Source: Nitrospira sp. (GTDB lineage: Bacteria > Nitrospirota > Nitrospiria > Nitrospirales > Nitrospiraceae). From it: 49,795 bases of DNA. The translations under genes were made by a program, and so were the position numbers. Location of the stretch: the NCBI GenBank assembly GCA_020846195.1, contig JADLEJ010000025.1, positions 1-49,795 of the forward strand. Direction: 5' to 3'. Positions 21,772-34,666 of the stretch are shown one piece after another. Every line of letters starts with the position of its first letter. The stretch's first letter is position 1. A model generated the notes under the pieces. It ran no database searches. It was not told the origin of the DNA and was given only the letters and a program-made list of their open reading frames with translations.

Positions 21772-23028
21772 TCACCGATGGAATAAGGCACGGATCGAAG
21801 CCGGAGGAGAGAACCACCGTGAGAGCGCCTGAATAGGACTCATCGCGCGAGCGAGCCAGTGCAACGACCGGCGCCAGCGGAACCACGCCGGGGGTGCATG
21901 AATAATAGGATCGTGACTGCGACATAGCGCAATTCCATATCGCCACCGCGCACGCCAGTCGTCTTGGAGAGTAAATAACAATGCCCCGGCCTCCCGTTCG
22001 TCGAGCCCATCCTGCTGCTGCAACAACAGGCTTTTCGGCATGCGTTGGGCAAGGCTCACAACATCTGAATCGGCGGCAATTAGGCTCACGATCTGCGGAG
22101 GGATGGGCGCCTCCATGATTCGATGAGATAGCGCCAGGCCAAGCAAAAGACTCCGATAGCATTTCCATTCCAAGGCCGTTGCGATCACTCGCCTCCAGTT
22201 CAACCGCCCGCCATGGATGAGTCCGGCTATCTCCGTCACGAAACTGAGCTGGCTCCAGGCCTGATGCGCTCCATGCGCGCACAGCAGGAGCACCGCCTCC
22301 TCCGGAGCCATTCCCTTAATCTTCTGGCCATTCAGCGAGATCGGCCTGGTATGCCCCCAGACCTCCGGCCGATCAATCGAAAAAACCATACCCGCATGTT
22401 TCACCGCCCACATCAGCTCGATCCGATGCGGCATGTTGGCATGGACGTAGACGAGCGCCCGCTCGCTGCCCCCGGCATCGACCGCACCCTCTCCTTCTCT
22501 TCCTCGCACAGAATAGCCCTGCGAGACCAATACTCGATGGGCACCTTCGAGTTGGCTCCGGCGCACGAGCATAACCGGATCTGCGGGAGCGCAGAGCGTG
22601 AGATCGCCATACATCATGGCAGCCAGGCCGGCGCCTCTGACGGGAAGCATCGCGATTCCGGCTTCATCGAAGCATCGAGACAATTGAAGCAGATCTTCCG
22701 CTCTGGCTCGATTCACGGCGGCCGCCGCCACCGTTCGCCGGCGAAGCGCATCGAGATCCGCCAGAGGAACAAGATCGGCGCACAGTCCGGCGAGCGTCTT
22801 GGCGAGCAAGGCTTCGACGCCGTGAGCGTTGGCCAGCTCCAGCAACAACTGCCAATTCAAGCCGGCTTGCGCGCCTTCAAGAATCCGTCGGCGGAGAGAC
22901 TCTGGCACTGCCGCTCTGGCGCACCAGATAAGAAATTGGGCTTCCCGGAAACGCACGGGGTTCCCCCATCCAGCAGTCACCGCGGAGGGCACCGTCCCAT
23001 CGACCGGATGTCGGAACGAGAATCCCAT
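21772..23028 (-). CDS. NTP_transf_5-like nucleotidyltransferase with lost catalytic Asp pair
   Basis: 418 residues, clearly paralogous to the protein at 30165-31388. Matching blocks include LLLELANAHGVEALLAKTLA and the end of the gene (WRARWRYGIALCRSHDP). In the intact paralogue the active site reads YGDLTLRDFSDLDLLIP. Here it is YGDLTLCAPADPVMLVR (~residue 140), so the DxD pair is gone, and the KG before it is RG. The family (PF14907) is common in lasso-peptide clusters. This copy is likely inactive or repurposed. It is the last gene of the RiPP locus and starts two bases after the short hydroxylase stop. Confidence 0.8.
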   Translation of the reverse strand: MGFSFRHPVDGTVPSAVTAGWGNPVRFREAQFLIWCARAAVPESLRRRILEGAQAGLNWQLLLELANAHGVEALLAKTLAGLCADLVPLADLDALRRRTVAAAAVNRARAEDLLQLSRCFDEAGIAMLPVRGAGLAAMMYGDLTLCAPADPVMLVRRSQLEGAHRVLVSQGYSVRGREGEGAVDAGGSERALVYVHANMPHRIELMWAVKHAGMVFSIDRPEVWGHTRPISLNGQKIKGMAPEEAVLLLCAHGAHQAWSQLSFVTEIAGLIHGGRLNWRRVIATALEWKCYRSLLLGLALSHRIMEAPIPPQIVSLIAADSDVVSLAQRMPKSLLLQQQDGLDEREAGALLFTLQDDWRARWRYGIALCRSHDPIIHAPPAWFRWRRSLHWLARAMSPIQALSRWFSPPASIRALFHR

Positions 23029-23030
23029 CG

Positions 23031-23810
23031 CTAGATTCGCCTTTCAGGCAACCCAACCAGCGTGTGAACGGATCTTGCCACCGGGCTTGTATACAGGCTC
23101 CAGACCGTCTCAAACTCCCGTGACGCCGCATCGAGCAGCCCGACCCGCAAAACCTCCGGCTGCCTGGGCTGGTAATGCGTGCCGAACAGCCCATCCCAGA
23201 TCGACAGCTTGCTCCCGAAATTCTTATTCCAATGGCGCGGATCGACACTGTGATGGATCTGATGATGCGCCGGACTGATGAACAGCCGATTGAACACCCG
23301 GCCATACGAGAGCCAGATGTGCAAGTGGCGCAAATGCATGCCCATCAGTGCAATTGCAAAACCGCCGGCCGCCATGACAATCGCCGTCGGGGAAAGAGCG
23401 CGGGGCGGCTCCCATCCCAGATGCCCGACCAATAACCACGACATCCCTTTTGCGCCCAGCATTCCGAGCCCCGTCATGATGGGAACGTAGAAAAGAAACG
23501 TCAGCACAATGTCGATGGCCGCGAACCGGACATCCAGCAAAGTCGACTGATGACGATACAACCGAGCAGGAAAAGCAAACTCTCGAAAGAACCCGTCCGC
23601 CAAGCGGCCCGCCCGCTTCGCCACAACATACACCGCCCAGGCAAAGGCCAAACTAGAGAGGAGATACGGCCAGGCCAATCCATTCGACAAATTGACGAAG
23701 ACACGAGGAATTTGCCCGATGGTTGCCGTGAACTGCTCCCAGGCAGAGACGGCGGACAGAGCGTATTCTGCCACGCGCTCTAAGAACCATCGTACTGTAT
23801 CAATCCCCAT
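23031..23810 (-). CDS. Fatty-acid hydroxylase-like membrane protein with internal deletion
   Basis: A 259-residue paralogue of the protein at 23889-24965. It aligns at both ends (MGIDTVRWFLERVAEYALSA; then HHQIHHSVDPRHWNKNFG), but about 85 residues between AAGGFAIAL and MGMHLRHLHIWLSYG are missing. The lost block contains the HDxxxxxxH and HxxHH boxes that hold the di-iron centre, so hydroxylase activity is not expected. Transmembrane segments remain (AWPYLLSSLAFAWAVYVVA). The reading frame is otherwise open, so it may still be expressed. Its start overlaps the truncated precursor gene at 23800-23865. Confidence 0.82.
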   Translation of the reverse strand: MGIDTVRWFLERVAEYALSAVSAWEQFTATIGQIPRVFVNLSNGLAWPYLLSSLAFAWAVYVVAKRAGRLADGFFREFAFPARLYRHQSTLLDVRFAAIDIVLTFLFYVPIMTGLGMLGAKGMSWLLVGHLGWEPPRALSPTAIVMAAGGFAIALMGMHLRHLHIWLSYGRVFNRLFISPAHHQIHHSVDPRHWNKNFGSKLSIWDGLFGTHYQPRQPEVLRVGLLDAASREFETVWSLYTSPVARSVHTLVGLPERRI

Positions 23811-23865
23811 GCCCCTCGATTCTGCGGTTACACTGTATGAACGGCTCCTTCTGCTGTTGTGTCAT
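23800..23865 (-). pseudogene. Truncated RiPP precursor gene
   Basis: The ATG at 23865 follows AAAGGAGGTGA and starts MTQQQKEPFIQ, matching the MEQQQKESYTEP leader start at 25192. After 11 codons the similarity ends and the frame runs into the leader of the hydroxylase gene, stopping at 23800. The YxxP motif, DIT box and core are all missing. It is a dead copy of a precursor. Confidence 0.7.
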
Positions 23866-23888
23866 GTTTCTTCACCTCCTTTCGTTGG

Positions 23889-24965
23889 TTAAAGTCCCTC
23901 AGAACGCACGGCATTCTGAGAGCGCGCAAATGGACCGGAGGCAAGGCTTCGGCGAATGAGCCCTCCTGCACGCTTAAACGGTCCGACATATAGCTTCCCG
24001 ACCGTTGCAAAATCCTCCTTGTTCGCGCCGGCAAGCCCGAATTGAAGACGCTCGTGGCGAGCCGGCACACAGAGCGTTCCGAAAATCCAATCCCACAACG
24101 CAAACTTCACCCCGAAATTCTTGTCGTGATGCCGCGGATCATTGCTGTGATGTGTTTGATGCACGATCGGAGTCACGAGGATGCGATTGAGCAGGGGGCC
24201 ATAGGAAATTGGAAGGTGCGAGTGCTGTAAATGAAATCCGGAAATTCCATACAGAAATCCCACAAGACTCACCCCAAACACAGCCGTCGCAGCGATCTCC
24301 TGCGCCGGGATAGCTTGATAAAACACGAACGCCAATCCAATCACGGGCGCGCGAAGCGTCGCAGTGACAAAAAATTCCATCGGGTGGGCGCGATAGGCCG
24401 AAATCGGGGTCAACACGTCAGCCGAGTGGTGAACCTGGTGAAACGCCCATAACAGCGGCACTTTGTGAAGTAGCACATGACTCCAGTAATTCATGAAGTC
24501 GTGCAGCAGATAGAAACCCAGTGCTGCAGCAAACAGAGCAGGCACAGACAAGGTGTCAGGAGGTGCCCACCCCGCATAATCGACTAAGACAACCCTCCCA
24601 ATTTTTCCGATAAGGGCGCTGAACCCAACCAGCATAGGAACACAGAGAAATACATTAATAAGAGTGCTCACCACATAGAATCGGTAATCCAGCTTCGCAG
24701 AAGGATGGGCAAGCACCTGCGCAGGGAAGAGAAAGGCCGAAAACGATTTCGTAGACCACGCGGCACGCGGCTTGGACAGGAGATACCCTCCCCCGGCGAC
24801 CGTCATGCTGGCCAACACATACGGCCAAGCCAAGCCGCTGGTAAGCTTCGTAAACGTCCCGCCGATTTCACCTAAGGCTGCCACCACACCATTCCAGGAA
24901 GAAAGGGCTGACAGAGCATATTCCGAAAATCTTTCGAACAGCCATTGCACAGTCTCAATCCACAT
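23889..24965 (-). CDS. Sterol desaturase / fatty-acid hydroxylase-superfamily membrane protein
   Basis: 358 residues from the ATG at 24965, preceded by AGGTGGAGGG. An upstream ATG (25040) would include a terminator hairpin. The His boxes of the di-iron membrane hydroxylases are complete: HDFMNYWSHVLLH (~155), WAFHQVHHSADVL (~175) and VHQTHHSNDPRHHDKN (~270). Several membrane helices precede and separate them. It may hydroxylate a lipid or, given its place between precursor genes, a peptide. The latter is only an inference. The last codons (SEGL, stop) and the bases after them match the 3' end of a pqqD-like gene, so the end of this gene is a fusion junction. Confidence 0.87.
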   Translation of the reverse strand: MWIETVQWLFERFSEYALSALSSWNGVVAALGEIGGTFTKLTSGLAWPYVLASMTVAGGGYLLSKPRAAWSTKSFSAFLFPAQVLAHPSAKLDYRFYVVSTLINVFLCVPMLVGFSALIGKIGRVVLVDYAGWAPPDTLSVPALFAAALGFYLLHDFMNYWSHVLLHKVPLLWAFHQVHHSADVLTPISAYRAHPMEFFVTATLRAPVIGLAFVFYQAIPAQEIAATAVFGVSLVGFLYGISGFHLQHSHLPISYGPLLNRILVTPIVHQTHHSNDPRHHDKNFGVKFALWDWIFGTLCVPARHERLQFGLAGANKEDFATVGKLYVGPFKRAGGLIRRSLASGPFARSQNAVRSEGL

Positions 24966-24995
24966 TGGCCCTCCACCTTTTCCTATCATCCCTAA

Positions 24996-25023
24996 GTTGG
25001 CCGTCCCTTTTGGGCCGGCCAAC
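24996..25023 (-). terminator. Hairpin after precursor gene 4
   Basis: Arms GTTGGCCG and CGGCCAAC with inner CCC/GGG around an AAAA loop. It lies between the precursor stop (25052) and the hydroxylase start (24965). There is no T-run, so it may attenuate rather than end transcription, favouring precursor mRNA. Confidence 0.65.
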
Positions 25024-25051
25024 CCAGGAACAATCCACACCGCAGCGTGAA

Positions 25052-25192
25052 TTAGAAGGGGGCCTCAGTCCCCGTCTTCTCTCTCACCTTGTCGCTGGTC
25101 TTCACCGCGGACGTTCCACCCGTGATGTCGCGCAACATTTCATGCGCCATCAAGACAGGCTCGGTGTACGATTCCTTCTGCTGTTGTTCCAT
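25052..25192 (-). CDS. RiPP precursor peptide 4 (lasso-like)
   Basis: 46 residues. The leader runs MEQQQKESYTEPVLMAHEML then RDITG. YTEP is the YxxP motif that lasso leaders use to contact the B1/RRE protein. Thr in DITGG falls at position -2 if the core begins at the second Gly. The core would then start GTSAVKTSD, with Asp at position 9, a typical macrolactam acceptor, followed by KVREKTGTEAPF. It starts six bases after the pqqD-like gene stop, with its ribosome-binding site inside that gene (GAAAGGGGGTGA). The cleavage site is inferred. Confidence 0.82.
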   Translation of the reverse strand: MEQQQKESYTEPVLMAHEMLRDITGGTSAVKTSDKVREKTGTEAPF

Positions 25193-25198
25193 GCTTTT

Positions 25199-25657
25199 TC
25201 ACCCCCTTTCTATTGTTAAAAGTCCCTCGTGACTCAGATGGGTCACCAGGGCGAAGAGATCATCGGCAATCCGCTCCGGCGGGGCGTCGAACCGCCCACA
25301 CAATGCAGTGTGAATAGCCTGAAGAGACGCTGTTCCCGTACAGGCGTCCCAAATGGCCGTCCCCACTCGATTCAAGGTGTAGTAGCGCCCGCTCCCTAAA
25401 TCGAGCAAGACCGTTTCGCCATCCAGCGTCGTGCCCTGCACATCCGGATTAGGGCGCGGCACCGCCGACATCAGATCTTGGCGGGTATCCTGCCTCCCTC
25501 GTTCAACCTGCTGCTGCTCTCCTTCCGACAGCATCGCGCGGGCGGCTTCGGCCAACTGTGCAGTCGCCGCATGGCCCGTCGGCGATAGGTGACCGGGATC
25601 GGCCTCCACAGTCATATCCGGTCTCAAGTCGGCGGTGATAAACGGCTGTCTCCCCAT
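25199..25657 (-). CDS. PqqD-like leader-binding protein (B1/RRE) with N-terminal extension
   Basis: 152 residues from the ATG at 25657, preceded by AAAGGAGTG. Residues ~70-150 are a PqqD/lasso B1 domain: TTLDGETVLLDLGSGRYYTL, NRVGTAIWDACTGTASL and ADDLFALVTHLSHEGLL. Such domains bind the leader of the precursor and present it to the processing enzymes. The ~65-residue N-terminal extension (ITADLRPDMTVEADPGH and on) is absent from the other two copies. The following gene is a precursor peptide, six bases away. Confidence 0.88.
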   Translation of the reverse strand: MGRQPFITADLRPDMTVEADPGHLSPTGHAATAQLAEAARAMLSEGEQQQVERGRQDTRQDLMSAVPRPNPDVQGTTLDGETVLLDLGSGRYYTLNRVGTAIWDACTGTASLQAIHTALCGRFDAPPERIADDLFALVTHLSHEGLLTIERG

Positions 25658-25698
25658 CGTGACACTCCTTTGGTTACGATTCGCCCACGTCACATTCG

Positions 25699-26598
25699 TT
25701 ATGTCCGTCCGGCACACAGCAGATCGGCCACGGCATCGCCGATTCGCTGCCCCGTATAGTTCTCGAAAAAAGTAAACCCCGGGCTGGTATTGACTTCGAA
25801 ACAGTAGTAGGCGCCAGCTGGGGTCCGGCGAAGGTCGATCCCACTCAGGCTCAGTCCCAGTCCCTTGGCGAGATCGAGACAGCGAGTCTGGACGTTCTGT
25901 TCCAATTCGACCGCCCGCATTGTGCGTTGCTTGTCCTCGCGACCGGCATATCGGTAATCCGTCCCATCCGACAGCACCTCGGTCGCGAACAGGCGGTCTC
26001 CCACCGTATGCACACGCAGATCCGCGCCTGGAATCGTTTCCTGCAACTGCACCGGACAGGAACGGATATGCTCCAGCCGGGGAAAATCGGCCGGCGTGAG
26101 CGGCCTCACGATCGACCGTTCCGCGCTGATGGATTTGTAGATGACGCGCCCCTGGCACTCGTCATAGAACCGGCGCGCTTCTTCCGGCACCATTGTCACT
26201 AATGTCTTTGGGACCAGGAACCCGGCCTGCTCGATCAGCCGCTGCTGGTAGGGTTTTGACATGTTCGTGTGCCCGGCTTGACGCCGGTTGATGACTAGGA
26301 CTGGAAGGCTCTCGGCGAATTCCCAGAGTGTCGTCGCGATGATCCGCTCTCTCGGCGCCGACGCCGATCGCGCGCCGACTCCACGCAAATACACAGCATC
26401 GATACTGGCGGCATCGATAGTTCGCTGGCCAAGACGGATGCGCTCCACGACCCTGCTACCGTCGCTCGACCAGGACACATCCCAATCCTGTCCTTCCGAC
26501 TCCGGATGGACAAGCATGAGATCAGCGTTCCGGACCGCAAGCCTGGCGCACACATTCGCGAGCACTGGATCGGCCATCGGTCCCATGAGAAGAATCAT
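25699..26598 (-). CDS. RimK-type ATP-grasp ligase
   Basis: 299 residues from the ATG at 26598 (MILLMGPMADPVLANVCARL). This start parallels MILILADSTDPWAARIH of the upstream paralogue and overlaps its 3' end by 77 bases. YQQRLIEQAGFLVPKTLVTM begins the ATP-grasp domain. GRVIYKSIS supplies the ATP-binding Lys, LQETIPGADLRVHTVGDRLF the central strands, and YYCFEVNTSPGFTFFENYTG (near residue 275) the Glu/Asn metal ligands. Family members join a carboxylate to an amine or hydroxyl through an acyl-phosphate. Here it is the best candidate for the bond-forming enzyme of the peptide cluster. Confidence 0.88.
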   Translation of the reverse strand: MILLMGPMADPVLANVCARLAVRNADLMLVHPESEGQDWDVSWSSDGSRVVERIRLGQRTIDAASIDAVYLRGVGARSASAPRERIIATTLWEFAESLPVLVINRRQAGHTNMSKPYQQRLIEQAGFLVPKTLVTMVPEEARRFYDECQGRVIYKSISAERSIVRPLTPADFPRLEHIRSCPVQLQETIPGADLRVHTVGDRLFATEVLSDGTDYRYAGREDKQRTMRAVELEQNVQTRCLDLAKGLGLSLSGIDLRRTPAGAYYCFEVNTSPGFTFFENYTGQRIGDAVADLLCAGRT

Positions 26599-27514
26599 GC
26601 TGCGCCAGGCTCCTCTGTTCAGAAAGGTATTCAAGTAACTGCTCCACCATCTGCTGCTGGACATCCTGCGGGCAACGCCAGAAGTTCGGCGTGCCGCTGA
26701 TATCGAGGCACCAGATTTCTCCGCTGGGGCCAATCACAATCTGGCATTCGGCAAAGGTAAGCCCCAATGCGCGCGCGAGGTCACGACAACGCGCGGTGTG
26801 AGACGAACGCACTTCCACCGGCTGCGACACCGCCTCGCCTGAACGAAGGACCGTCGCCACCGCTCGCTCACCTGCCACATAGACTGTCGCCTGTTGCCCA
26901 GGCGGAACAGTTTGAAGCGATACCGCCTGTTGCTCCATGATTCGACTGATCTGCTCGGCCCCATCGTGCGCGTGCAGGAACTGGCCCGGCTCACTCGACC
27001 CAAGCGGCTTGAGATAGGCCGACCCGCCCCAGGTCATGAATTGCTGCAGGGCATCGGTTTGGCTGGACGTACAACGGACTGGCGGAAGGAGAAATCCATG
27101 CGTTTGCGCAAGCGGCGCCAGCAGCGGGCTTCCGGAAATCAGTGTGGGCCTGCCGCCGGGAACGGGCCGATTGATCACAGGGCAGGGCATCGCATTCAAG
27201 AACGCCAGCCAGGCCGCAGTGGCCTCCTTCGTCACATAGCCGGCATCGGCATCCGATAGCCCCTCAAGATCCACGCGTAGCGGAAACGGGAGGCGGGCAA
27301 AAATCCCAGTAAGAGATTCAAGGGGAATCCTCTGCCCGTCGATCTCCAGAAACCCTTGGACAACCGCCTCTCTGGCCATAACTGGCCAATTGAGCAGGAT
27401 CTTATCCAGCAGCTGCACGGGTTCAACCCAACGGACATCGCCACCCGTTCGCTGAACTTCTCGATGGATACGCGCCGCCCAGGGATCGGTTGAATCGGCA
27501 AGAATGAGAATCAT
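26522..27514 (-). CDS. ATP-grasp-like protein with altered metal-binding motif
   Basis: 330 residues, preceded by GGAGAGGAG. The plan matches the downstream ATP-grasp: an N-terminal Rossmann-like domain (MILILADSTDPWAARIHREV), a linker VINRPVPGGRPTLISGSPLL, SAYLKPLGSSEPGQFLHAHD as the ATP-binding region, and RDLARALGLTFAECQIVIGP. The C-terminal metal-binding segment is WCLDISGTPNFW. The usual ExNxxPGF is changed to DxSGTPNF, so the key Glu and Asn are replaced. It may be a non-catalytic partner of the second ATP-grasp or have altered chemistry. Confidence 0.82.
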   Translation of the reverse strand: MILILADSTDPWAARIHREVQRTGGDVRWVEPVQLLDKILLNWPVMAREAVVQGFLEIDGQRIPLESLTGIFARLPFPLRVDLEGLSDADAGYVTKEATAAWLAFLNAMPCPVINRPVPGGRPTLISGSPLLAPLAQTHGFLLPPVRCTSSQTDALQQFMTWGGSAYLKPLGSSEPGQFLHAHDGAEQISRIMEQQAVSLQTVPPGQQATVYVAGERAVATVLRSGEAVSQPVEVRSSHTARCRDLARALGLTFAECQIVIGPSGEIWCLDISGTPNFWRCPQDVQQQMVEQLLEYLSEQRSLAQHDSSHGTDGRSSARECVRQACGPER

Positions 27515-27638
27515 TGAAGAGGACTCCTCTCCGGCGCCTGAATTCAGAGGTGAGGAACGCCACGCCTTTGAGGAGAATAGCCCCAGCCAGGCGCCCTGCC
27601 TAGACCACTAGAAGCGGGGCTCCTACTACTTAAGTTTG

Positions 27639-27654
27639 TACGTAGGCATACGTA
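27639..27654. promoter_or_regulatory. TACGTA-N4-TACGTA repeat upstream of the ATP-grasp genes
   Basis: Two TACGTA palindromes, four bases apart, within the 252-base gap between the ABC transporter and the ATP-grasp genes. An ACTTAAGT palindrome lies about ten bases away. This is a plausible dimeric-regulator site for a promoter serving 27514 and downstream. No regulator gene is present in the locus. Confidence 0.35.
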
Positions 27655-27766
27655 TTTCTGACGGCTTGGCCGAGAGAAAGAACCGAAGGTCACTCAGCTG
27701 GATACAACACAACCGGCTCGCCAGCTCAATGCCAGCCAGGAGAACTCACGATCCCAAAGAGGGGAA

Positions 27767-29578
27767 TTACTGATAGTGCTGCGCTTGAGTGAGGAATAAC
27801 GAGGCATAGAGGCCCTGGCGGCCCATCAAGTCATCGTGGGAACCTTGCTCTACGATCTGGCCGCGATCCACGACGAAAATCCTATCCGCCATCTTGACCG
27901 TGGAGAGCCGATGGCTGATTAAGATGGCGGTCCGTCCCTGCGCCAGTTCATGAAACCGCTCGAACAGCTCCGCTTCCGCTTTGGCGTCCATAGCGCTGGT
28001 CGGCTCATCGAGAATCAGGATCTGGGAATTGCGGAGAACCGCTCTCGCCAACGCCACCTTCTGCCACTCTCCGATACTCAGCTCATGCCCCCCGTCGAAT
28101 AACTTTCCCAGCAACGAGTCGTAGCCCTTCGGCAATCGCTCAATGGTCTCATGGACCCCGGCTTGCTTGGCCGCCTGCACGACCGCCGGCAATTCGACAT
28201 CGGGCGCATGCACCCCCAATGCGATATTGTCTTTGGCGGAGAACTGAAACTTCACAAAATCCTGGAAAATTCCGCTGACCGCGCCGCGAACATCGGCGAT
28301 GGCATAGTCGCGAAGATCCGTCCCATCAACCGTAATACGACCGCTCGTGGGATCGTAGAGACGGCACAACAGTTTTACCAAGGTGGTTTTCCCCGCGCCG
28401 TTGGCTCCGACAAACGCCACATGCTCGCCGGGCTTGATCGTAAAGGTGAAGTCGCGGACCGCCACCCGCTCTTCGTGGGGATACTGAAACGACACCTGCT
28501 CAAACCTGATCCCCTGCCCAAGCGGGGCAGGAAACGGCCGTGGCTGGGCGGCTTCAGGCAACTTTGAGCGAATCGCGAGAAACTCATTCAGCGTTGTCAG
28601 AAAGAGATTGCTCTCATACAAACTCGACACACTCCAGCCCAACCCTTCGAGAAACCCCGAGGCTCGCTGGATCGCCTGAAAGAACATGACCAGGTCGCCG
28701 ACCGTCAACAGTCCATGAAACGTTCGCACTGCGACAAAACTGTAGACCCCGAAGACTCCCGCCACCCCCACAATCTGCGCAGCTAATCCAAACAACGCCC
28801 ACCGGCGCTCTAAGGCGATCCGTTCCTGGCGCAGCACCGCCCGCACCTCGCGGAACCATTCCCGCAACCGAGGCCCGAGGTTGAACAAACGAACTTCTTT
28901 GGCGGCGGTGGCCTGCGTCAACAGCATGTTGACGTACCAGGCTTTCCGTTCCAGCGGCGTCCGCTCGCGCTCCCAGGCAAACAGCCGGTTGGATTGCTGC
29001 AACCGGACAAAGAAATACGGAATCGCCGTCAGGGCAAGAATCGGAATGACCGCCCAATGCAGCCACCAGAGAATGCCTGCCATCGCCAGCAGCGAGATGC
29101 CATCCTGAAAACATTGCAAGAGCGCGTTGAGAATCGCGGTGGGGCGATAAGGCGCTTCCTGCTGCGCCCGATGCAGCGTATCTTGATACCGCGCATTCTC
29201 GTAATACTCGAGATCGACTTCAACGGACTTCGCCTGCAGCAACGCATGCATATGGTCGGTGACGACTTGAGCATGAATCCGGGAGATCAGAGACGCGACA
29301 ACCGTGAGCATGGCGCTGATCACCGCGGCCCCGGCTAGCCCCGCGAGAATCGTCGCGATGGGAGTCAGCGTGGCATCCTGCGATGGAGTCTTGAGCCCCT
29401 CGGTCACTGCGTCGATCAATAACTTCGTCAGATACAGCACGACCAGAGGCAATACCCCCTGGATCACCCGCACGACGATACTACCAACGGCAAGGCTCGG
29501 ACTGCTCTGCCAGACAAACGCGAGTGCGTACCGAAGCGTCTGAAGGAAGGGACGTATGCGGAGCAACAGACTATTCAT
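27767..29578 (-). CDS. ABC exporter (membrane domain fused to ATPase), lasso D-type
   Basis: 603 residues. Residues 1-340 hold six hydrophobic helices of a type IV ABC exporter. The ATPase carries Walker A GANGAGKTTL near 390, signature LSIGEWQKVALARA near 500, Walker B ILILDEPTSAMDA near 520 and ISHRLSTVKMADRIFVVD near 553. There is no N-terminal C39 peptidase domain, so leader removal must come from the B2-like protein next door. In lasso clusters this is the D protein, which exports the mature peptide and gives immunity. 25 bases separate it from the B2-like gene. Confidence 0.93.
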   Translation of the reverse strand: MNSLLLRIRPFLQTLRYALAFVWQSSPSLAVGSIVVRVIQGVLPLVVLYLTKLLIDAVTEGLKTPSQDATLTPIATILAGLAGAAVISAMLTVVASLISRIHAQVVTDHMHALLQAKSVEVDLEYYENARYQDTLHRAQQEAPYRPTAILNALLQCFQDGISLLAMAGILWWLHWAVIPILALTAIPYFFVRLQQSNRLFAWERERTPLERKAWYVNMLLTQATAAKEVRLFNLGPRLREWFREVRAVLRQERIALERRWALFGLAAQIVGVAGVFGVYSFVAVRTFHGLLTVGDLVMFFQAIQRASGFLEGLGWSVSSLYESNLFLTTLNEFLAIRSKLPEAAQPRPFPAPLGQGIRFEQVSFQYPHEERVAVRDFTFTIKPGEHVAFVGANGAGKTTLVKLLCRLYDPTSGRITVDGTDLRDYAIADVRGAVSGIFQDFVKFQFSAKDNIALGVHAPDVELPAVVQAAKQAGVHETIERLPKGYDSLLGKLFDGGHELSIGEWQKVALARAVLRNSQILILDEPTSAMDAKAEAELFERFHELAQGRTAILISHRLSTVKMADRIFVVDRGQIVEQGSHDDLMGRQGLYASLFLTQAQHYQ

Positions 29579-29603
29579 GGAAATAGGTGCGGATGTTCTT
29601 CCC

Positions 29604-30077
29604 TCAGATGGCTGTCATCGTCCCCTTATGGGAAGACACAGGCGGCATGGCCTCACGGTCGCCCACGCGATCGGAAGGGAATGAATAGGTGACGGTGAAC
29701 TGCTGCCAATGCTGGCCAGGTTCGTGAAACGGCTGACGATCCAGCATCAACCAAGCATGGCCATCGAGGCCAGCCTTGTCCTTTCGCACTCCGCAATGAA
29801 ACGACACCGGATAGCCCGATCGTGTGGCAAACCAATACAAGGCCAACGACCGGGGAAAGCAATTTCCTTTCGCATTGTAGGGAAGGAGCTGAAGCCATCG
29901 GTCTAGATAGTAGACCAGGTCTTCGAACCGCGCCTGATCGGGATTCCCGGAAAGCGCGACCGGATCCAGCCGCTTCAGCACTCTCGGGAGGCTCTCGCCG
30001 CGCAACCGGAAACGAATCCACGACACCACCGCAGCCACCTGCAGCAGCATCCGGTACTTTCTCACGATTCGCGTCAT
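29604..30077 (-). CDS. Lasso-type B2 leader peptidase (transglutaminase-like)
   Basis: 157 residues from the ATG at 30077 (MTRIVRKYRMLLQVAAVVSW). A GTG at 30149 would add an unlikely 24. It has the papain/transglutaminase-like triad of lasso B proteins: Cys73 in GNCFPRSLALYWFATRSG, His107 in LDGHAWLML and Asp113 in LDRQPF. The N-terminal helix (LLQVAAVVSWIRFRL) is the usual amphipathic segment. The family cuts the leader after a Thr-x pair when the leader is held by B1. Its presence strongly suggests that the precursors are cut at DIT-x. Confidence 0.9.
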   Translation of the reverse strand: MTRIVRKYRMLLQVAAVVSWIRFRLRGESLPRVLKRLDPVALSGNPDQARFEDLVYYLDRWLQLLPYNAKGNCFPRSLALYWFATRSGYPVSFHCGVRKDKAGLDGHAWLMLDRQPFHEPGQHWQQFTVTYSFPSDRVGDREAMPPVSSHKGTMTAI

Positions 30078-30164
30078 CCTGGACTCAGTCTGCCACGTCG
30101 CAAGGAATACTCCCGCAATCTCATCTCCTGCAGGCCGGCAATCTCCCACATCTTCAAGAGCCCA

Positions 30165-31388
30165 TCAACTCCCATGATCGACCCATCGATTGATCGTGCC
30201 TCGAATGGGAGATGGAACCAGATTCCTCACCGCTCGCTGGCACGGCCGAACGAGATGCGACAATTGCGTAAGCTGCCTCCCTCGGGAAAACCAGCTTGGC
30301 GGAGCATCCACAATTGAAGAGCCGTCCCGGCACAGTGCCAGACCGAACCGCCACCGTTCCCACCAGGTATCCTTCAACAAAAAATAGAAGGCCACGGCCT
30401 GTTCCTCGCTGACGCCGTTCCGAGGATTCGCGAGAAGACTCGCCGGCATACGCTCGGACAACATTCCAACATCGACATCGTCAGAATAGCGTGCTCGAAT
30501 GGATTCCGGGATCGGCGCATCCAGCACCCAATCAGCCAGCGCCAATCCAATATGCACGAGCCGCAGGCAGCGCCAGGCCGTTGCCTGTGAAAAAACCTTG
30601 GTCCAATCGAGATCCGGATGCGAACGGAGCAGTTCAGCGACATCGCACACCCATTTGAGCTGCTCCCAGGCATGCTTCGATCCATGCACACAGAGCAGAA
30701 TCAGAAGCTCCTCAGGCGCCAATGTGTGAACGGTCGATGTCCCCAGCACCATACGCGACCGATGCGCCCAGAACTCTGGACGATCCAGCTGAAAGGAAAA
30801 ATGCTGATGCGCCATCACCCACTGAAGATCGACTCTAAACAGGCTGCGCTTCTTGATAAACACATGATAGGGCCCATCATCGTGCTCGGTTTCCGCAGAG
30901 TCGGCCGAAGGGTCTTTCCGTTCATAGCCCTGAGCGAACAACACCGTTTGCGCAGCCCCAACCGCAGATTCGGGAATCAAGAGATCGAGATCGCTGAAAT
31001 CGCGAAGCGTCAGATCTCCATACGCGGACAAGGCCAAGGTCGCGCCTTTAATGGGCACGACTGGGACGCTGTGCGCGGCAAACGCGGCGCACAGGTTTCC
31101 TAGTTCCTGTGCGAGCGAGCGATTCAACAACGCACAGGCTTGTGTTTTCTGACGCAGCTTTGTCAACGTATCGCCCGGCACAAGAGCAGGACAGATAGTC
31201 GACAGATTCCGGTAGAGTAACGGAAGCACGCCGTGATACGCGGCAAGGTCCAGCAGCAACCCCCAATCCAGAGGCTCTCCGACCCGCGCGCCAATGCGCG
31301 CGCGCAGCTCTTCAGTGACGCACGTGCGCGCACACCAGACCAGCAATTCCGATTCAGACGACCAGGGGAATTGCCGTTCGGCCTTCAT
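30165..31388 (-). CDS. NTP_transf_5-family nucleotidyltransferase
   Basis: 407 residues from the ATG at 31388, which overlaps the upstream kinase-like stop as ATGA. Residues ~110-140 contain VPVVPIKGATLALSAYGDLT followed by LRDFSDLDLLIP: the KG and DxD of the nucleotidyltransferase fold are intact. HDDGPYHVFIKKRSLFRVDL and LILLCVHGSKHAWEQLKW are further family blocks. Lasso-peptide loci often carry this family (PF14907), and its role there is not settled. It may nucleotidylate the peptide or a carrier. A second copy with a damaged active site ends the locus at 21772. Confidence 0.87.
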   Translation of the reverse strand: MKAERQFPWSSESELLVWCARTCVTEELRARIGARVGEPLDWGLLLDLAAYHGVLPLLYRNLSTICPALVPGDTLTKLRQKTQACALLNRSLAQELGNLCAAFAAHSVPVVPIKGATLALSAYGDLTLRDFSDLDLLIPESAVGAAQTVLFAQGYERKDPSADSAETEHDDGPYHVFIKKRSLFRVDLQWVMAHQHFSFQLDRPEFWAHRSRMVLGTSTVHTLAPEELLILLCVHGSKHAWEQLKWVCDVAELLRSHPDLDWTKVFSQATAWRCLRLVHIGLALADWVLDAPIPESIRARYSDDVDVGMLSERMPASLLANPRNGVSEEQAVAFYFLLKDTWWERWRFGLALCRDGSSIVDAPPSWFSRGRQLTQLSHLVRPCQRAVRNLVPSPIRGTINRWVDHGS

Positions 31389-32404
31389 CGCCCCTTCTCC
31401 AGCAACGGAGTGATCAGTTTCGGCAAGTCCAGAATATCGCGGCCGAAATGCAGCCGGTAACAATCGACTTGCTGTACGAGCTTCGCCAGCACTTTGAATT
31501 CTCGCCGGGCGACCTCTTGATCGTAGACGAGCAAGGCTTGCGGCAAGAGCGCCTCCAATGCCCGGCTCTTGGGAAGCAGTTCAAGGTGGCTCTTCGGTGA
31601 ATCGACGACATGGGGAAATAACACAAGTGCGGGTCGGCAACGCTCCCCGACCGCCGTCTGATAGAGGTCTTCGGCATAAAAAAATCGCTTGGGCACACCT
31701 GGGTGGAGCACCTGCTCCGATGCCGACTTCAATTCTGGAAAGAACTGCACCGTGGCATCGGTGACATTGATCTTGATCGGAAATGGCAGCACCTCCACCT
31801 GCGCTCCGGAATCCTGCAAGAGCGGATGGTCGTCCGATAGATAGCGATAGCCAGACCGAAGCAAAGAGATAAACGAGGTGGTCTTTCCACGGCCACTATT
31901 GCCTGGAATCAAGACGCCGCGTCCGTTGTACTCCAGCGCCGTCGCATGAATCGTGTAGAGATCGCGCCGCCGCAACAATTCAATCAACGCCAGGTGAAAG
32001 AGATACTCGATAAGATTGGAGGGCAGCCGTTCTGGATTGATCACATACCCATCGGCCCGGCCTTGCGCGCCGTCGATCGCCAACACCCCGATCTCATGAA
32101 ACTCCGCGATCAGAAGCCCCTGATCCACACTCACCTTGTAGGGCAATCCGGTTGCGCGCCGGTCCCCGACGGCCTCGCCGGTACCGGACGCCAGCTGCCG
32201 AGCCGAGGCAGAAATTGTGAGAGGTATCTCCGCTCGATCCTTCACCTGGTAAAAACGAAGAGCCAGCCCCGCATCGGCATCGAGCGCATTTTCCCGGCGA
32301 AAATGCCGCAGCAACTCGTTCACCGGTTGCGCCAAAATCGGCGCATCCGTCTCATACCTGACTGCCGTGCCATAGAGTGAATACCGATATTCCGCCATGC
32401 TCAT
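31385..32404 (-). CDS. HPr-kinase-like ATP-binding protein
   Basis: 339 residues. A Walker A GNSGRGKTTSF near residue 166 follows IHATALEYNGRGVLIP. SGYRYLSDDHPLL carries the downstream acidic residues of HprK-type kinases. Homologues in lasso clusters such as paeninodin phosphorylate a C-terminal Ser. None of the four cores here ends in Ser, so the target may differ, for example Tyr, Thr or an internal site. The gene is translationally coupled to the nucleotidyltransferase, as in many lasso loci. ~100 bases upstream is precursor 1 with its terminator. Confidence 0.87.
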   Translation of the reverse strand: MSMAEYRYSLYGTAVRYETDAPILAQPVNELLRHFRRENALDADAGLALRFYQVKDRAEIPLTISASARQLASGTGEAVGDRRATGLPYKVSVDQGLLIAEFHEIGVLAIDGAQGRADGYVINPERLPSNLIEYLFHLALIELLRRRDLYTIHATALEYNGRGVLIPGNSGRGKTTSFISLLRSGYRYLSDDHPLLQDSGAQVEVLPFPIKINVTDATVQFFPELKSASEQVLHPGVPKRFFYAEDLYQTAVGERCRPALVLFPHVVDSPKSHLELLPKSRALEALLPQALLVYDQEVARREFKVLAKLVQQVDCYRLHFGRDILDLPKLITPLLEKGR

Positions 32405-32472
32405 TTCTACCCTACCCCTGGGATTCGGCCGACGTATTTCGTTCTACTATGCATCGCTGCAAGAAGATGAGC

Positions 32473-32494
32473 CGGCCCGCTGATTGGCGGGCCG
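32473..32494 (-). terminator. Hairpin after precursor gene 1
   Basis: CGGCCCGC and GCGGGCCG arms of eight bases with a six-base loop, 12 bases after the stop. No strong T-run, so partial termination or mRNA 3'-end protection is likely. Confidence 0.7.
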
Positions 32495-32505
32495 ACCCCG
32501 TCACA

Positions 32506-32640
32506 TTACTCGTAATTCCACCAGCGACGCGGCTTATTGTCATCACAGTTGTAGCCAGACTGACCCGCAGTAATGTCGCGCAACAGTTCATGCTTCACCA
32601 CTACCGGCTGGACATACTGCTCTTTCTTCTGTTCCATCAT
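32506..32640 (-). CDS. RiPP precursor peptide 1 (lasso-like)
   Basis: 44 residues beginning MMEQKKEQYVQPVVVKHELL then RDITA. YVQP is the YxxP leader motif. Cutting after DITA leaves the core GQSGYNCDDNKPRRWWNYE (19 residues): Gly1 and Asp8/Asp9, the exact requirement for a lasso macrolactam, with bulky Trp-Trp and Tyr near the C-terminus that could act as plugs. One Cys is present. A GAGGAGG stands seven bases before the tandem ATG codons. The chemistry is inferred from motif positions. Confidence 0.85.
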   Translation of the reverse strand: MMEQKKEQYVQPVVVKHELLRDITAGQSGYNCDDNKPRRWWNYE

Positions 32641-32668
32641 GCTATTGCCTCCTCAATTTTAAAATAGT

Positions 32669-32694
32669 CTGGCCAACCTCAGTAGACCGGCCAG
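32669..32694 (-). terminator. Terminator after precursor gene 2
   Basis: CTGGCC / GGCCAG hairpin followed on the minus strand by ACTATTTTAAAATT, about 15 bases after the precursor 2 stop and just before the precursor 1 ribosome-binding site. Confidence 0.7.
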
Positions 32695-32709
32695 CCCTCC
32701 ATCAGACTG

Positions 32710-32832
32710 CTACTGTTCCTGGCACTGGATTGTTCTGCAAGGCTGCTGCCCGGAGTTCCCCGCCGTGATGTCGCGCAGCAGTTGGTGCTTCACCACTACC
32801 GGCTGGACATACTGATCTTTCTTTTGTTCCAT
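32710..32832 (-). CDS. RiPP precursor peptide 2
   Basis: 40 residues. The leader MEQKKDQYVQPVVVKHQLL then RDITA is nearly the same as in precursor 1. The core after DITA is GNSGQQPCRTIQCQEQ, with Gly1 but no Asp/Glu at positions 7-9 (the only acid is Glu15) and two Cys. It therefore cannot make a normal eight- or nine-residue lasso ring, and another crosslink would be needed. It starts six bases after the stop of a pqqD-like gene. Confidence 0.82.
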   Translation of the reverse strand: MEQKKDQYVQPVVVKHQLLRDITAGNSGQQPCRTIQCQEQ

Positions 32833-32838
32833 TCTCCT

Positions 32839-33192
32839 TCACCTCCTTTCCTGTTGAAGTAGCCCTTCCTGAACCAATTCATTGGCCAGATCGACGAGAT
32901 CGCCGAGGGCTCGCTCGGATGCGACATCAAACCGGTCGCAGATCACCGCATGGATATCGACCATCGTGTTCTGCCCAGTGCAATGCTCCCAGATCACACT
33001 GCCCAACCGATTCAAGGTGTAGTACCGGCCGCTGCTGAGGTCCAGGAGAACCGTTTCTCCATCCATCGTCGTCCCTTGCACGTCGGGACTGGGCCGCAAA
33101 ACGATGCGATCAAGTTGCGTCCAGTCAATTGAGCCGTGGATCGAAGATTCTGCCGCACCGGACAATATCGTCGTAGCTGATATCTCTACCAT
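32839..33192 (-). CDS. PqqD-like leader-binding protein (B1/RRE), copy 2
   Basis: 117 residues, start supported by AAGGAGG upstream. SPDVQGTTMDGETVLLDLSS, GRYYTLNRLGSVIWEHCTGQ and ANELVQEGLLQQERR form the PqqD/B1 domain. It is almost identical in its C-terminal half to the copy at 33768, while the N-terminal ~35 residues differ. It directly precedes precursor 2. The AGGAGGTGA that ends the gene doubles as the precursor's ribosome-binding site. Confidence 0.9.
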   Translation of the reverse strand: MVEISATTILSGAAESSIHGSIDWTQLDRIVLRPSPDVQGTTMDGETVLLDLSSGRYYTLNRLGSVIWEHCTGQNTMVDIHAVICDRFDVASERALGDLVDLANELVQEGLLQQERR

Positions 33193-33605
33193 TTGCCATC
33201 CTCCTTGCCGGGCGCTGCCCGGCTTTTCGACTGCGCCTAGGAGCCGCTGTACCAGCGGCGACTACCTGCATCGACTTCCACTCGTCATCGCGACCGACTG
33301 TCGTCGTCTTCAAGAAAGGTAGCCCGATAGTGGAATCTTGCCTATACCGCCAAAGACCTGGTGAAATACCCTACCTTGGTATGTAATCAGGGGTGCGACT
33401 GCGTGCAACAAGGCCTTGAGGACAGGGCTTTCAGGCTTGTCGAGCCATGCGAGCAAGCACCTGGCAAGCATTGTGGCTCTCAGAGGAACTCTGGAATGAG
33501 GCGTGAAACAGTGAACGGGAGGCCATGGCAAGCGAATCAGAGAAGAAGATACGAGGCGAGAGTATTCCCGGCACAACAAACAAAGGCTAGGCTGCAAAAA
33601 GAAAA
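33193..33605. other. Gap of 413 bases between precursor 3 terminator and pqqD-like copy 2
   Basis: No supported gene. Frames of 103 (minus) and 141 (plus) residues exist but look like chance: odd composition, no ribosome-binding site, and the plus frame crosses the antisense of precursor 3. At 33207-33223 a perfect GCCGGG/CCCGGC hairpin ends one base before the AAGGAGG of pqqD-like copy 2 on the minus strand. It could modulate its translation. A promoter for the 33192 gene may also lie here. Confidence 0.45.
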
Positions 33606-33633
33606 GCTGGCCGATCCTCACGAATCGGCCAGC
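33606..33633 (-). terminator. Rho-independent terminator after precursor gene 3
   Basis: GCTGGCCGAT / ATCGGCCAGC arms of ten bases with an eight-base loop, followed on the minus strand by TTTTCTTTTT. This is the strongest terminator of the locus, 15 bases after the stop. Confidence 0.85.
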
Positions 33634-33647
33634 CCATTAGTCCACTA

Positions 33648-33761
33648 CTACTTGTCGCAATCCTTATCGCAACCGCGGATGGATTGCTTCGCCGTAATGT
33701 CGCGCAGCAACTCGTGCTTCACCATCACCGGCTGGACATACTGTTCTTTCTGTTGTTCCAT
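33648..33761 (-). CDS. RiPP precursor peptide 3
   Basis: 37 residues. The leader MEQQKEQYVQPVMVKHELL then RDITA matches precursors 1 and 2. The core after DITA is KQSIRGCDKDCDK: Asp8 is present but residue 1 is Lys rather than Gly, and two Cys flank KD. A Lys1 start would be unusual for a lasso ring. It starts six bases after the pqqD-like stop, and a strong terminator follows. Confidence 0.83.
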   Translation of the reverse strand: MEQQKEQYVQPVMVKHELLRDITAKQSIRGCDKDCDK

Positions 33762-33767
33762 TCTTCT

Positions 33768-34109
33768 TCACCTCCTTTCCTGTTGAAGTAGCCCCTCCTG
33801 AACCAATTCATTGGCCAGGTTGACAAGGTCGTCGAGGGCTCGCTCAGGGACAACATCGAACCGGTCGCAAATAGCCGCCTGAATATCGGTCATCGTGCAT
33901 TGCCCCGTACAATGCTCCCAAATCACACTCCCCAGCCGATTCAGAGTGTAGTAGCGGCCGCTGCTGAGATCCAGGAGAACCGTCTCCCCATCCATCGTTG
34001 TGCCTTGCACGTCGGGACTTGGTCGCAGGATCGTCTGATCTAACAGGGTTCGATCAATCGCAGGGATGGGGACATCCGATACGGCAGGTATCTGCTGGGA
34101 GTCCGACAT
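33768..34109 (-). CDS. PqqD-like leader-binding protein (B1/RRE), copy 3
   Basis: 113 residues. GTTMDGETVLLDLSSGRYYT, LNRLGSVIWEHCTGQCTM and LANELVQEGLLQQERR form the B1 domain. The ATG at 34109 follows AGGAGA. It is the first gene of the RiPP locus and, with precursor 3, makes one of three pqqD-precursor cassettes that share the same six-base junction. Confidence 0.9.
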   Translation of the reverse strand: MSDSQQIPAVSDVPIPAIDRTLLDQTILRPSPDVQGTTMDGETVLLDLSSGRYYTLNRLGSVIWEHCTGQCTMTDIQAAICDRFDVVPERALDDLVNLANELVQEGLLQQERR

Positions 34110-34357: not shown

Positions 34358-34666
34358 CTAGACATCGCTCTGATTTAGCATTTGCTCCAGCTGAAGCTTG
34401 GCATTGTCCTCGAACCGCACAAACTCGATGCCGAAGCGATTCTCGCGCTGCCAGCGTACCGTCGCGATCGCGATATCGATGGGGTTGCGCGCGCCGGACA
34501 GATGGATATGGACTCTGAAGTGAGTGCCGATTTGGGCAGGAAGATCCGATGAAATCTCGCCGCCAGTAATGGTGAGATTCGTCATCGTTCCGGTTCCATC
34601 GCCACCCTCGCCACTCAGTGTGACGGGATAGTCTACTTCGACCCTCGGCCGGCCGCGTTCATGCAT
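34358..34666 (-). CDS. PilZ-domain protein
   Basis: 102 residues from the ATG at 34666 (MHERGRPRVEVDYPVTLSGE), preceded by AAGGGGGTG. The longer in-frame start at 34855 runs antisense-like through purF and is rejected. RGRPR is the RxxxR c-di-GMP motif. NLTITGGEISSDLP corresponds to (D/N)xSxxG with Thr in place of Ser. VRWQRENRFGIEFVRFED is the typical PilZ end. It probably senses c-di-GMP. No motility gene is nearby. Confidence 0.85.
   Translation of the reverse strand: MHERGRPRVEVDYPVTLSGEGGDGTGTMTNLTITGGEISSDLPAQIGTHFRVHIHLSGARNPIDIAIATVRWQRENRFGIEFVRFEDNAKLQLEQMLNQSDV

What the first reader, a model, noticed from the sequence alone, without database searches (positions are those of the whole stretch)
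21772..34109. A lasso-like RiPP locus without a lasso cyclase but with two ATP-grasp proteins
Seen: precursors with lasso-type leaders, three PqqD/B1 proteins, a B2 transglutaminase-like peptidase with Cys73-His107-Asp113, an HPr-kinase-like protein, NTP_transf_5 proteins and a peptidase-free ABC exporter. Apart from the ATP-grasps and the hydroxylase-like proteins this is the gene content of paeninodin-type lasso clusters. Known: lasso rings are closed by an asparagine-synthetase-like C protein. None is found between the NTP_transf_5 gene at 21772 and the PilZ gene at 34358. Two RimK-type ATP-grasp genes stand in its place, the enzyme type that makes graspetide ester/amide crosslinks. Inference: the ATP-grasp pair closes the ring or adds a crosslink, giving a hybrid class of RiPP.
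Basis: partly seen in the sequence, partly recalled or inferred. Interest (0 to 1): 0.93.

Follow-up and report, generated by a model that had tools for sequence, protein, structure and literature searches.

The report
ATP-grasp crosslinker steered by leader adaptor
A Nitrospira gene cluster that resembles a lasso-peptide cluster has no lasso-closing enzyme, nor was one found in the rest of its draft genome, and carries instead a graspetide-type ATP-grasp enzyme, a partner without the catalytic residues and a leader-binding protein that would likely steer the enzyme to crosslink small lysine- and acid-rich peptides.

Summary
In detail: three PqqD/B1 proteins, a B2 peptidase, HprK-like and NTP_transf_5 proteins, an ABC exporter, two ATP-grasp proteins, four lasso-leader precursors, and no lasso cyclase in the locus or the 94.9%-complete genome. 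The reading changes. (1) The B1-HprK-NTP_transf_5-B2-ABC half also stands alone in other Nitrospira, without cyclase and without ATP-grasp, so the ATP-grasps do not simply replace the cyclase. (2) Only one ATP-grasp keeps the catalytic triad; the second is degenerate. This pair recurs in 78 of 81 loci of many phyla. (3) The pair travels with a tag, F[IV]x4RP, on a neighbouring protein: 70 of 81 loci, against 2-6 of 81 for control patterns. Elsewhere the tag sits on proteases, a tyrosinase and others, most with Lys-Asp/Glu repeats (46 of 55). Here it sits on the PqqD next to the ATP-grasp: 14 of 14 such PqqDs, 0 of 33 others. (4) Precursors beside that PqqD are Lys-rich. I infer that the tagged PqqD is an adaptor presenting lasso-leader peptides to a Lys-Asp/Glu crosslinking graspetide synthetase. 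A 2022 survey reports peptidase-linked ATP-grasps without precursors; the tag offers a testable answer.

The parts
33768..34109 (-). B1c: PqqD-domain leader binder without the FIx4RP tag (half A)
   Evidence: PF05402 62.2 bits; no tag
33648..33761 (-). precursor of half A, 37 aa, YVQP leader, Cys-containing core
   Evidence: relative in L132
32839..33192 (-). B1b: PqqD-domain leader binder without the tag (half A)
   Evidence: PF05402 57.4 bits; no tag
32710..32832 (-). precursor of half A, 40 aa
32506..32640 (-). precursor of half A, 44 aa, core GQSGYNCDD...
   Evidence: close relatives in L008 and L132
31385..32404 (-). HprK-like protein, Walker A seen by eye
   Evidence: TIGR04352 61.7 bits, below cut-off
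30165..31463 (-). NTP_transf_5 protein (start codon uncertain)
   Evidence: PF14907 217.1 bits
29604..30149 (-). B2 transglutaminase-like leader peptidase; the only B2 match of the genome
   Evidence: NF033537 43.7 bits; single match
27767..29578 (-). ABC exporter, no peptidase domain listed
   Evidence: PF00664, PF00005
26522..27514 (-). GraspII: degenerate ATP-grasp partner
   Evidence: ATP-grasp fold predicted, mean pLDDT 84.4; triad absent
25699..26598 (-). GraspI: ATP-grasp with catalytic triad, graspetide synthetase type (ATG at 26598)
   Evidence: TIGR04187 117.5 bits, below cut-off; 7drm E 3.6e-36; triad
25199..25657 (-). PqqDa: presumed adaptor, N-terminal tag followed by a PqqD domain (start at 25657 assumed)
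   Evidence: PF05402 63.9 bits; tag
25619..25645 (-). the tag PFITADLRP in PqqDa
25052..25192 (-). precursor of half B, 46 aa, YTEP leader, core GTSAVKTSDKVREK...
23889..25040 (-). FA_hydroxylase-family protein, His clusters present
   Evidence: PF04116 86.9 bits; His clusters
23031..23810 (-). second FA_hydroxylase gene, internally shortened, likely inactive
   Evidence: PF04116 positions 63-132 only; alignment
21772..23028 (-). second NTP_transf_5 protein, half B
   Evidence: PF14907 128.6 bits

Best explanation
The ATP-grasp half of the locus is predicted to crosslink lysine to Asp/Glu side chains in its own small precursor (25052-25192 and its relatives), to which the enzyme would be brought by PqqDa, a PqqD-domain protein that carries the same F[IV]x4RP tag that ATP-grasp pairs of this family have on neighbouring proteins in many phyla. 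Steps: (1) shown: GraspI has an intact ATP-grasp triad and is related to graspetide synthetases; GraspII has the fold in prediction but lacks the triad. (2) shown: the pair and the tag go together; in this locus the tag is on the PqqD beside GraspI, not on the precursor. (3) inferred: the tag docks PqqDa on the ATP-grasp pair, as the conserved leader motif of graspetide precursors is thought to do. (4) inferred: the PqqD domain holds the YxxP leader of the half-B precursor and so presents its Lys/Asp/Glu core in trans. (5) inferred: GraspI phosphorylates an Asp/Glu side chain and Lys attacks, giving an isopeptide ring; GraspII is a scaffold. (6) inferred: the single B2 removes leaders of both precursor sets and the ABC protein exports the products; HprK, NTP_transf_5 and the hydroxylase tailor. 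Half A is a separate module without a cyclase.
For: GraspII beside GraspI, same strand, in 78 of 81 loci (domain ends within 300 nt in 61 and within 409 nt in 78; in L040 and L085 the frames are broken or overlapping, so at least 76). Tag within -3.5/+1.5 kb on the same strand in 70 of 81 loci, opposite strand 3 of 81, six control patterns 2-6 of 81. Fresh loci: 10 of 12 new GraspI-family loci (300 bits or more) have the tag; 0 of 19 new loci with more distant ATP-grasps (under 215 bits, no GraspII match above 15 bits) have it. Tag on PqqD: 14 of 14 PqqDs beside GraspI (13 by the script plus the window's own, which the script put in the other class because its frame is longer), 0 of the 33 others. 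Fusion GraspI-tag-PqqD in Nostoc. Lys-Asp/Glu repeats in 46 of 55 tagged proteins against 3 of 649 other frames of the same loci. Half-B cores: Lys 16.5% against 6.9% in half-A cores, permutation p 0.0003; K..[DE]K or KY.E in 14 of 15 against 1 of 13. GraspI to PsnB, CdnC, MdnC by profile.
Against: In the AlphaFold2 model of the Nostoc fusion the tag is not ordered (residues 301-320, block means 27 and 38), so docking is not shown; the alignment had 26 rows, 4 of them with the tag. No product is known. 3 of the 15 half-B cores (one each in L008, L009, L010) are of a Cys-containing CQK type, one of them without K..[DE]K or KY.E. After the tag PqqDa has a stretch unlike the Lys/acid tails and repeats of the tagged proteases, so the analogy is partial. 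11 of 81 loci have no F[IV]x4RP hit; one of these (L032) has Tyr for Phe, as has one of the two fresh misses (L185).
Confidence: 0.58

Rival explanations
1. The ATP-grasp pair replaces the lasso cyclase and closes an N-terminal ring on the half-A precursors.
For: No cyclase in locus or genome; ATP-grasp of macrocyclase type; 7 of 13 half-A cores have Asp/Glu at core position 7-9 (my count on the cores listed).
Against: The half-A module exists without the ATP-grasp pair and without a cyclase in 8 of 8 wide loci; half-A PqqDs have no tag; 6 of 13 half-A cores have no acid at 7-9.
Confidence: 0.1
2. The tagged PqqD is itself the substrate: the pair modifies its N-terminal region, and the precursors are modified by other enzymes.
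For: In other loci the tag is on the chain that looks like the substrate; the tag of PqqDa is followed by a partly conserved stretch.
Against: No Lys-Asp/Glu repeat is seen in PqqDa, whereas the neighbouring precursors have Lys/acid cores; in all 14 cases the tag is joined to a PqqD domain.
Confidence: 0.13
3. GraspI adds amino acids to the precursor or to a tagged protein (RimK-like ligation) rather than crosslinking it.
For: RimK domain match; RimK structures are further hits.
Against: The graspetide synthetases score 93-128 bits, RimK-type ligases 27-38.
Confidence: 0.12
4. The locus is a decayed lasso cluster that lost its cyclase, or whose cyclase lies in the missing 5% of the draft genome.
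For: Draft genome; one hydroxylase copy is internally shortened.
Against: GraspI of the window type is in 7 of 79 Nitrospira genomes, one of them on a single contig; 24 of 24 full-length PF00733 proteins of these seven are AsnB type. The locus itself was read in the window, L132 and L007-L009.
Confidence: 0.04

Closest known systems
Graspetide synthetases (PsnB, MdnC/MdnB, CdnC, PruB)
   Same: Fold and profile match, catalytic triad; a conserved leader-type motif tied to the enzyme family.
   Different: Motif is not on the precursor but on a PqqD protein; degenerate partner; lasso-type leader on the precursor.
ATP-grasp branches 7 and 8 of PMC8939145 (passages read)
   Same: Linked to peptidases of unrelated families; branch 8 loci have a truncated, inactive ATP-grasp; no precursor was found there. 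The likeness is by description only; sequences were not compared.
   Different: Here a tag and Lys-Asp/Glu repeats on the peptidases themselves are found, and a form with PqqD and lasso-type precursors. The window's GraspII is full length, not truncated.
Graspetide groups 32, 33, 34, 35 and 39 of PMC13097080 (section 7 read in full; else passages)
   Same: Groups 33 and 39 have a transglutaminase-fold protein, group 32 diverse proteases, 34 and 35 long repetitive precursors.
   Different: Whether any of these is the present family could not be told; supplements were out of reach. PqqD does not occur in the main text.
Lasso peptide clusters of paeninodin type (gene content recalled)
   Same: B1, B2, HprK-like, NTP_transf_5, ABC, YxxP leader with Thr at -2.
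   Different: No cyclase; two sets of precursors; ATP-grasp pair.
Engineered lasso-graspetide chimeras (PMC13003496; abstract and passages read)
   Same: Both enzyme types on one peptide; the graspetide leader can be moved.
   Different: Man-made, two leaders on one chain; here a natural locus in which the motif is on a separate protein.
Rosaritide MirC partner protein (PMC13097080, passages)
   Same: A graspetide synthetase that needs a partner protein, whose N-domain weakly resembles an RRE.
   Different: MirC is a predicted PPIase-type protein; here a PqqD-domain protein with an ATP-grasp tag.

Membership tests
lasso peptide cluster | asparagine-synthetase-like cyclase (C) | tested here: not met
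   No PF00733 match in the locus; 2 full-length ones in the genome, both AsnB type
lasso peptide cluster | B1 leader binder and B2 peptidase | tested here: met
   PF05402 x3; NF033537 43.7 bits over cut-off 33
lasso peptide cluster | YxxP leader and Thr at -2 of the core | tested here: met
   4 of 4 window precursors
lasso peptide cluster | Asp/Glu at core position 7-9 | tested here: inconclusive
   3 of 4 window precursors; 7 of 13 half-A cores of window-type loci
graspetide | ATP-grasp of macrocyclase type with intact triad | tested here: met
graspetide | curated NCBIfam graspetide synthetase cut-offs (TIGR04184, 04185, 04187) | tested here: not met
   88.4, 80.8 and 117.5 bits against cut-offs 475, 425 and 350
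graspetide | enzyme-binding motif in the precursor's own leader | tested here: not met
   The F[IV]x4RP tag is on PqqDa; the window precursors do not have it
graspetide | side-chain ester or amide crosslink in the product | not testable with these tools
   needs mass spectrometry
HPr-rel-A system (TIGR04352/TIGR04353) | HprK_rel_A and PqqD_rel_X over cut-off | tested here: not met
   61.7 of 200 bits; 14.5-18.8 of 35 bits
branch 8 ATP-grasp system (PMC8939145) | truncated inactive ATP-grasp beside the active one | tested here: inconclusive
   An inactive partner is there (0 of 78 triads intact), but the window's is full length in fold; branch 8 sequences were not compared

The most novel reading that the evidence does not exclude
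A natural peptide-modification system in which the enzyme-docking leader has been cut off the substrate and fused to a leader-binding adaptor: a protein-crosslinking ATP-grasp pair, which elsewhere stitches Lys-Asp/Glu ladders on proteases and a tyrosinase marked by an FIx4RP tag, is thereby re-aimed at lasso-leader peptides. The tagged proteases are the missing precursors of peptidase-linked ATP-grasp loci.
Probability: 0.45. Interest if true: 0.9.

Novelty: new variant of a known kind. Interest (0 to 1): 0.8.

Why it matters
If true, it shows how a graspetide-type enzyme can be given new substrates by swapping an adaptor, a plug that nature already uses. In Nitrospira PqqD and B2 are found with a lasso cyclase, PqqD, B2, HprK and NTP_transf_5 with a radical SAM enzyme, and the full PqqD-HprK-NTP_transf_5-B2-ABC set with the ATP-grasp pair or with no cyclising enzyme at all. 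It also gives a concrete candidate for the precursors that a 2022 survey (PMC8939145) could not detect for peptidase-linked ATP-grasps: the peptidases themselves, marked by a short tag and mostly bearing Lys-Asp/Glu repeats. Both claims can be tested by co-expression and intact mass in E. coli.

Tried and rejected
Rejected: (a) cyclase elsewhere in the genome: PF00733 in the own genome and 17 relatives, then 43 long frames in L001, L002 and L133-L174 scored against AsnB and lasso-C profiles built here: 40 are AsnB type, 3 lasso-C type (G003, G054, G055). For the seven window-type genomes 24 of 24 full-length hits were read and all 24 score higher as AsnB; 23 have MCG within the first 90 residues of the frame, one (L143, a longer frame) does not. 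For the other genomes only part of the hits was read. My notebook (entry 7) says '30+' for the 24; the recount stands. The lasso-C profile was built from nine Nitrospira lasso loci, three of which it then recognised, so that is circular; their low AsnB scores and missing MCG start are not. (b) Membership of the HPr-rel-A system: below cut-offs. (c) Chance: control patterns, opposite strand, fresh loci. The tag pattern was chosen after seeing the first 80 loci, hence the fresh test. (d) Docking by AlphaFold2 on the Nostoc fusion: tag disordered, no support. An alignment with PqqD rows mixed in (A2) was misaligned and not used further. (e) A fresh test in 398 genomes of a phylum around a Zoogloea genome found the pair only in that genome, so it added nothing.

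Weak points: the control genes are longest-frame calls and may include spurious frames, which would lower their repeat count. The core test used 13 half-A and 15 half-B precursors of window-type loci only; one further half-A precursor of L132, and the precursors of L013-L018, were not in it. One search scanned 51 C-terminally tagged proteins over 150 aa; four shorter or partial tagged frames (L021, L029, L062 second, L075) were left out; how many of the 51 have no peptidase match is not shown by the tally. Whether the tagged proteases are secreted was not tested. Of 46 Nitrospira B2 matches 29 loci were read at 3 kb; the other 17, the window's own among them, were not read there.

Literature: eight searches. 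Of eight papers with both PqqD and ATP-grasp three were looked into by passages (PMC8939145, PMC12710340, PMC9332814); none describes this arrangement in what I saw. The library holds open-licence papers only.
Full report
What is there. The minus-strand locus 21772-34109 holds, in order of transcription, B1c, precursor, B1b, two precursors, HprK-like, NTP_transf_5, B2, ABC exporter (half A, 27767-34109), then GraspII, GraspI, PqqDa, precursor, two FA_hydroxylase genes and a second NTP_transf_5 gene (half B, 21772-27514). By its closest relatives the organism is a Nitrospira (93% to a protein of a Nitrospira sp. MAG). GraspI of the window type (over 580 bits) is in 7 of 79 Nitrospira genomes, the own one included; GraspII, GraspI and a tagged PqqD are also seen in three genomes of another genus of the family (L181-L183).

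No cyclase. PF00733 finds two full-length proteins in the own genome, both AsnB type with an MCG start; neighbours look like glycosyltransferases by eye. In the seven window-type genomes 24 of 24 full-length hits are AsnB type. True lasso cyclases were read in other Nitrospira, beside their own B2 (L172-L174 and nine loci).

The chassis stands alone. Of 46 B2 matches in 39 of 79 genomes, 29 loci were read at about 3 kb: 9 have PqqD and a cyclase beside B2, 4 have HprK beside B2, and 16 have the window's NTP_transf_5-B2 order. Of these 16, three are window-type genomes (G039, G067, G068); of the other 13, 11 have no GraspI match and two have a more distant one on another contig. Eight of the latter kind read at 9-20 kb have no cyclase, GraspI or GraspII match; 6 of 8 show PqqD, precursor, HprK, NTP_transf_5, B2 and ABC, in L125 no precursor was matched and L126 is cut before PqqD. 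L120 lies in a single-contig genome. The HprK-B2 loci have a radical SAM protein between PqqD and HprK in the two scanned (L128, L129). So the leader machinery is combined with a cyclase, a radical SAM enzyme, the ATP-grasp pair or none, and the ATP-grasp pair is an addition rather than a substitute.

The pair. A scan of genome contigs with GraspI gave 81 relatives, 80 kept. With the window, 78 of 81 have a GraspII relative on the same strand; its domain ends within 300 nt of the GraspI domain in 61 and within 409 nt in 78. In L040 and L085 the frames are broken or overlap, so that at least 76 are safe. GraspI keeps Asp, Glu and Asn of the metal site in 70 of 70 frames under 480 aa (longer frames were left out); GraspII keeps the set in 0 of 78. 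GraspII is predicted to fold as an ATP-grasp (mean pLDDT 84.4, nearest PruB and MdnC). GraspI's closest solved structures are graspetide synthetases.

The tag. Proteins beside the pair share F[IV]x4RP, often L..FI...LRPDLS.GAL. It is present in 70 of 81 loci; opposite strand 3 of 81; six control patterns 2-6 of 81; 73 hits in 0.46 Mb near the pair and 2 in 0.64 Mb further off on the same strand. In fresh loci it is present in 10 of 12 GraspI-family loci (300 bits or more) and in 0 of 19 loci of more distant ATP-grasps; five loci seen before and L180, whose region had been read as L132, were left out of these counts. L198, one of the two misses, had no GraspII match either; the other, L185, and L032 of the first set have Tyr for Phe.

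Partners elsewhere. Of 51 proteins with the tag near the C-terminus, Pfam names Peptidase_M6 in 16, Peptidase_S8 in 9, Nal1_C in 8, Astacin in 4, Peptidase_S7 in 2 and single cases of tyrosinase, B_lectin and others (families can overlap in one protein). Of 55 tagged proteins (these and four with the tag at the N-terminus) 46 have at least five Lys-Asp/Lys-Glu pairs within 60 residues, against 3 of 649 other frames of the same loci. This is what a Lys-to-Asp/Glu crosslinker would need; the crosslink itself is inferred.

The tag in the window. Here it is PFITADLRP near the start of PqqDa (25619-25645). All 14 PqqDs beside GraspI have it, none of the 33 others read: not the half-A B1s, the lasso B1s or the stand-alone ones. 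In Nostoc it lies in the linker of a GraspI-PqqD fusion (P0107, L015). The precursors beside PqqDa mostly have Lys-rich cores (KYREKTSDK, GVKTSDK), those of half A have Cys in 13 of 13; the Nostoc precursor has a YxxP leader and a DKGKEKENSDKNTEK stretch.

Mechanism. I propose that PqqDa carries the precursor by its YxxP leader and docks by its tag on the ATP-grasp pair, so that the leader function is split between two proteins. Docking is not shown: the tag is disordered in the model of the fusion.

Known work. PMC8939145 (passages) states that for its branches 7 and 8 no precursors could be predicted, that most loci have peptidases of unrelated families, and that branch 8 typically has a truncated inactive ATP-grasp; it suggests that the peptidases cleave some other protein. 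The tag and repeats suggest instead that the peptidase chain is the substrate. PMC13097080 (section 7 in full; else passages) lists graspetide groups with a transglutaminase fold (33, 39) and with diverse proteases (32), without analysis in the text; overlap with the present family is possible. PMC13003496 (abstract and passages) made lasso-graspetide chimeras by engineering. PMC12291112 (abstract) shows that one graspetide synthetase cyclises proteins. PMC12710340 (passages) is on leader-binding domains. In the eight literature searches made I saw no paper on PqqD-linked ATP-grasps or this tag.

Noticed in passing
L120-L127, e.g. L120:7870-13207: Stand-alone Nitrospira module PqqD-precursor-HprK-NTP_transf_5-B2-ABC, several with Gly-rich cores, and neither lasso cyclase nor ATP-grasp; its chemistry is unexplained.
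   Followed up: partly
L128-L131: Nitrospira loci with PqqD, HprK, B2 and NTP_transf_5 and, in L128 and L129 (the two scanned), a radical SAM protein; like-sized frames in L130 and L131 were not scanned. L128 also has a large protein with a Matrixin match.
   Followed up: partly
L019-L086 (e.g. L020:10174-10743, L041:2-616, L035:5355-7334): Proteases, a tyrosinase and small proteins with long Lys-Asp/Lys-Glu repeats and the FIx4RP tag beside tandem ATP-grasps, in many bacterial phyla and some archaea.
   Followed up: yes
window 23031-23810: Second hydroxylase gene lacks about 86 residues with two His clusters compared with its relative in L132.
   Followed up: yes
L010:893-3898: Four PqqD genes in a row, each but one followed by its own precursor, in one Nitrospira locus.
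   Followed up: no
L033:3609-5246: An archaeal (Nitrosopumilus record) tyrosinase with a KEIIKDKEKEFGDKNP repeat and the tag beside an ATP-grasp pair.
   Followed up: no
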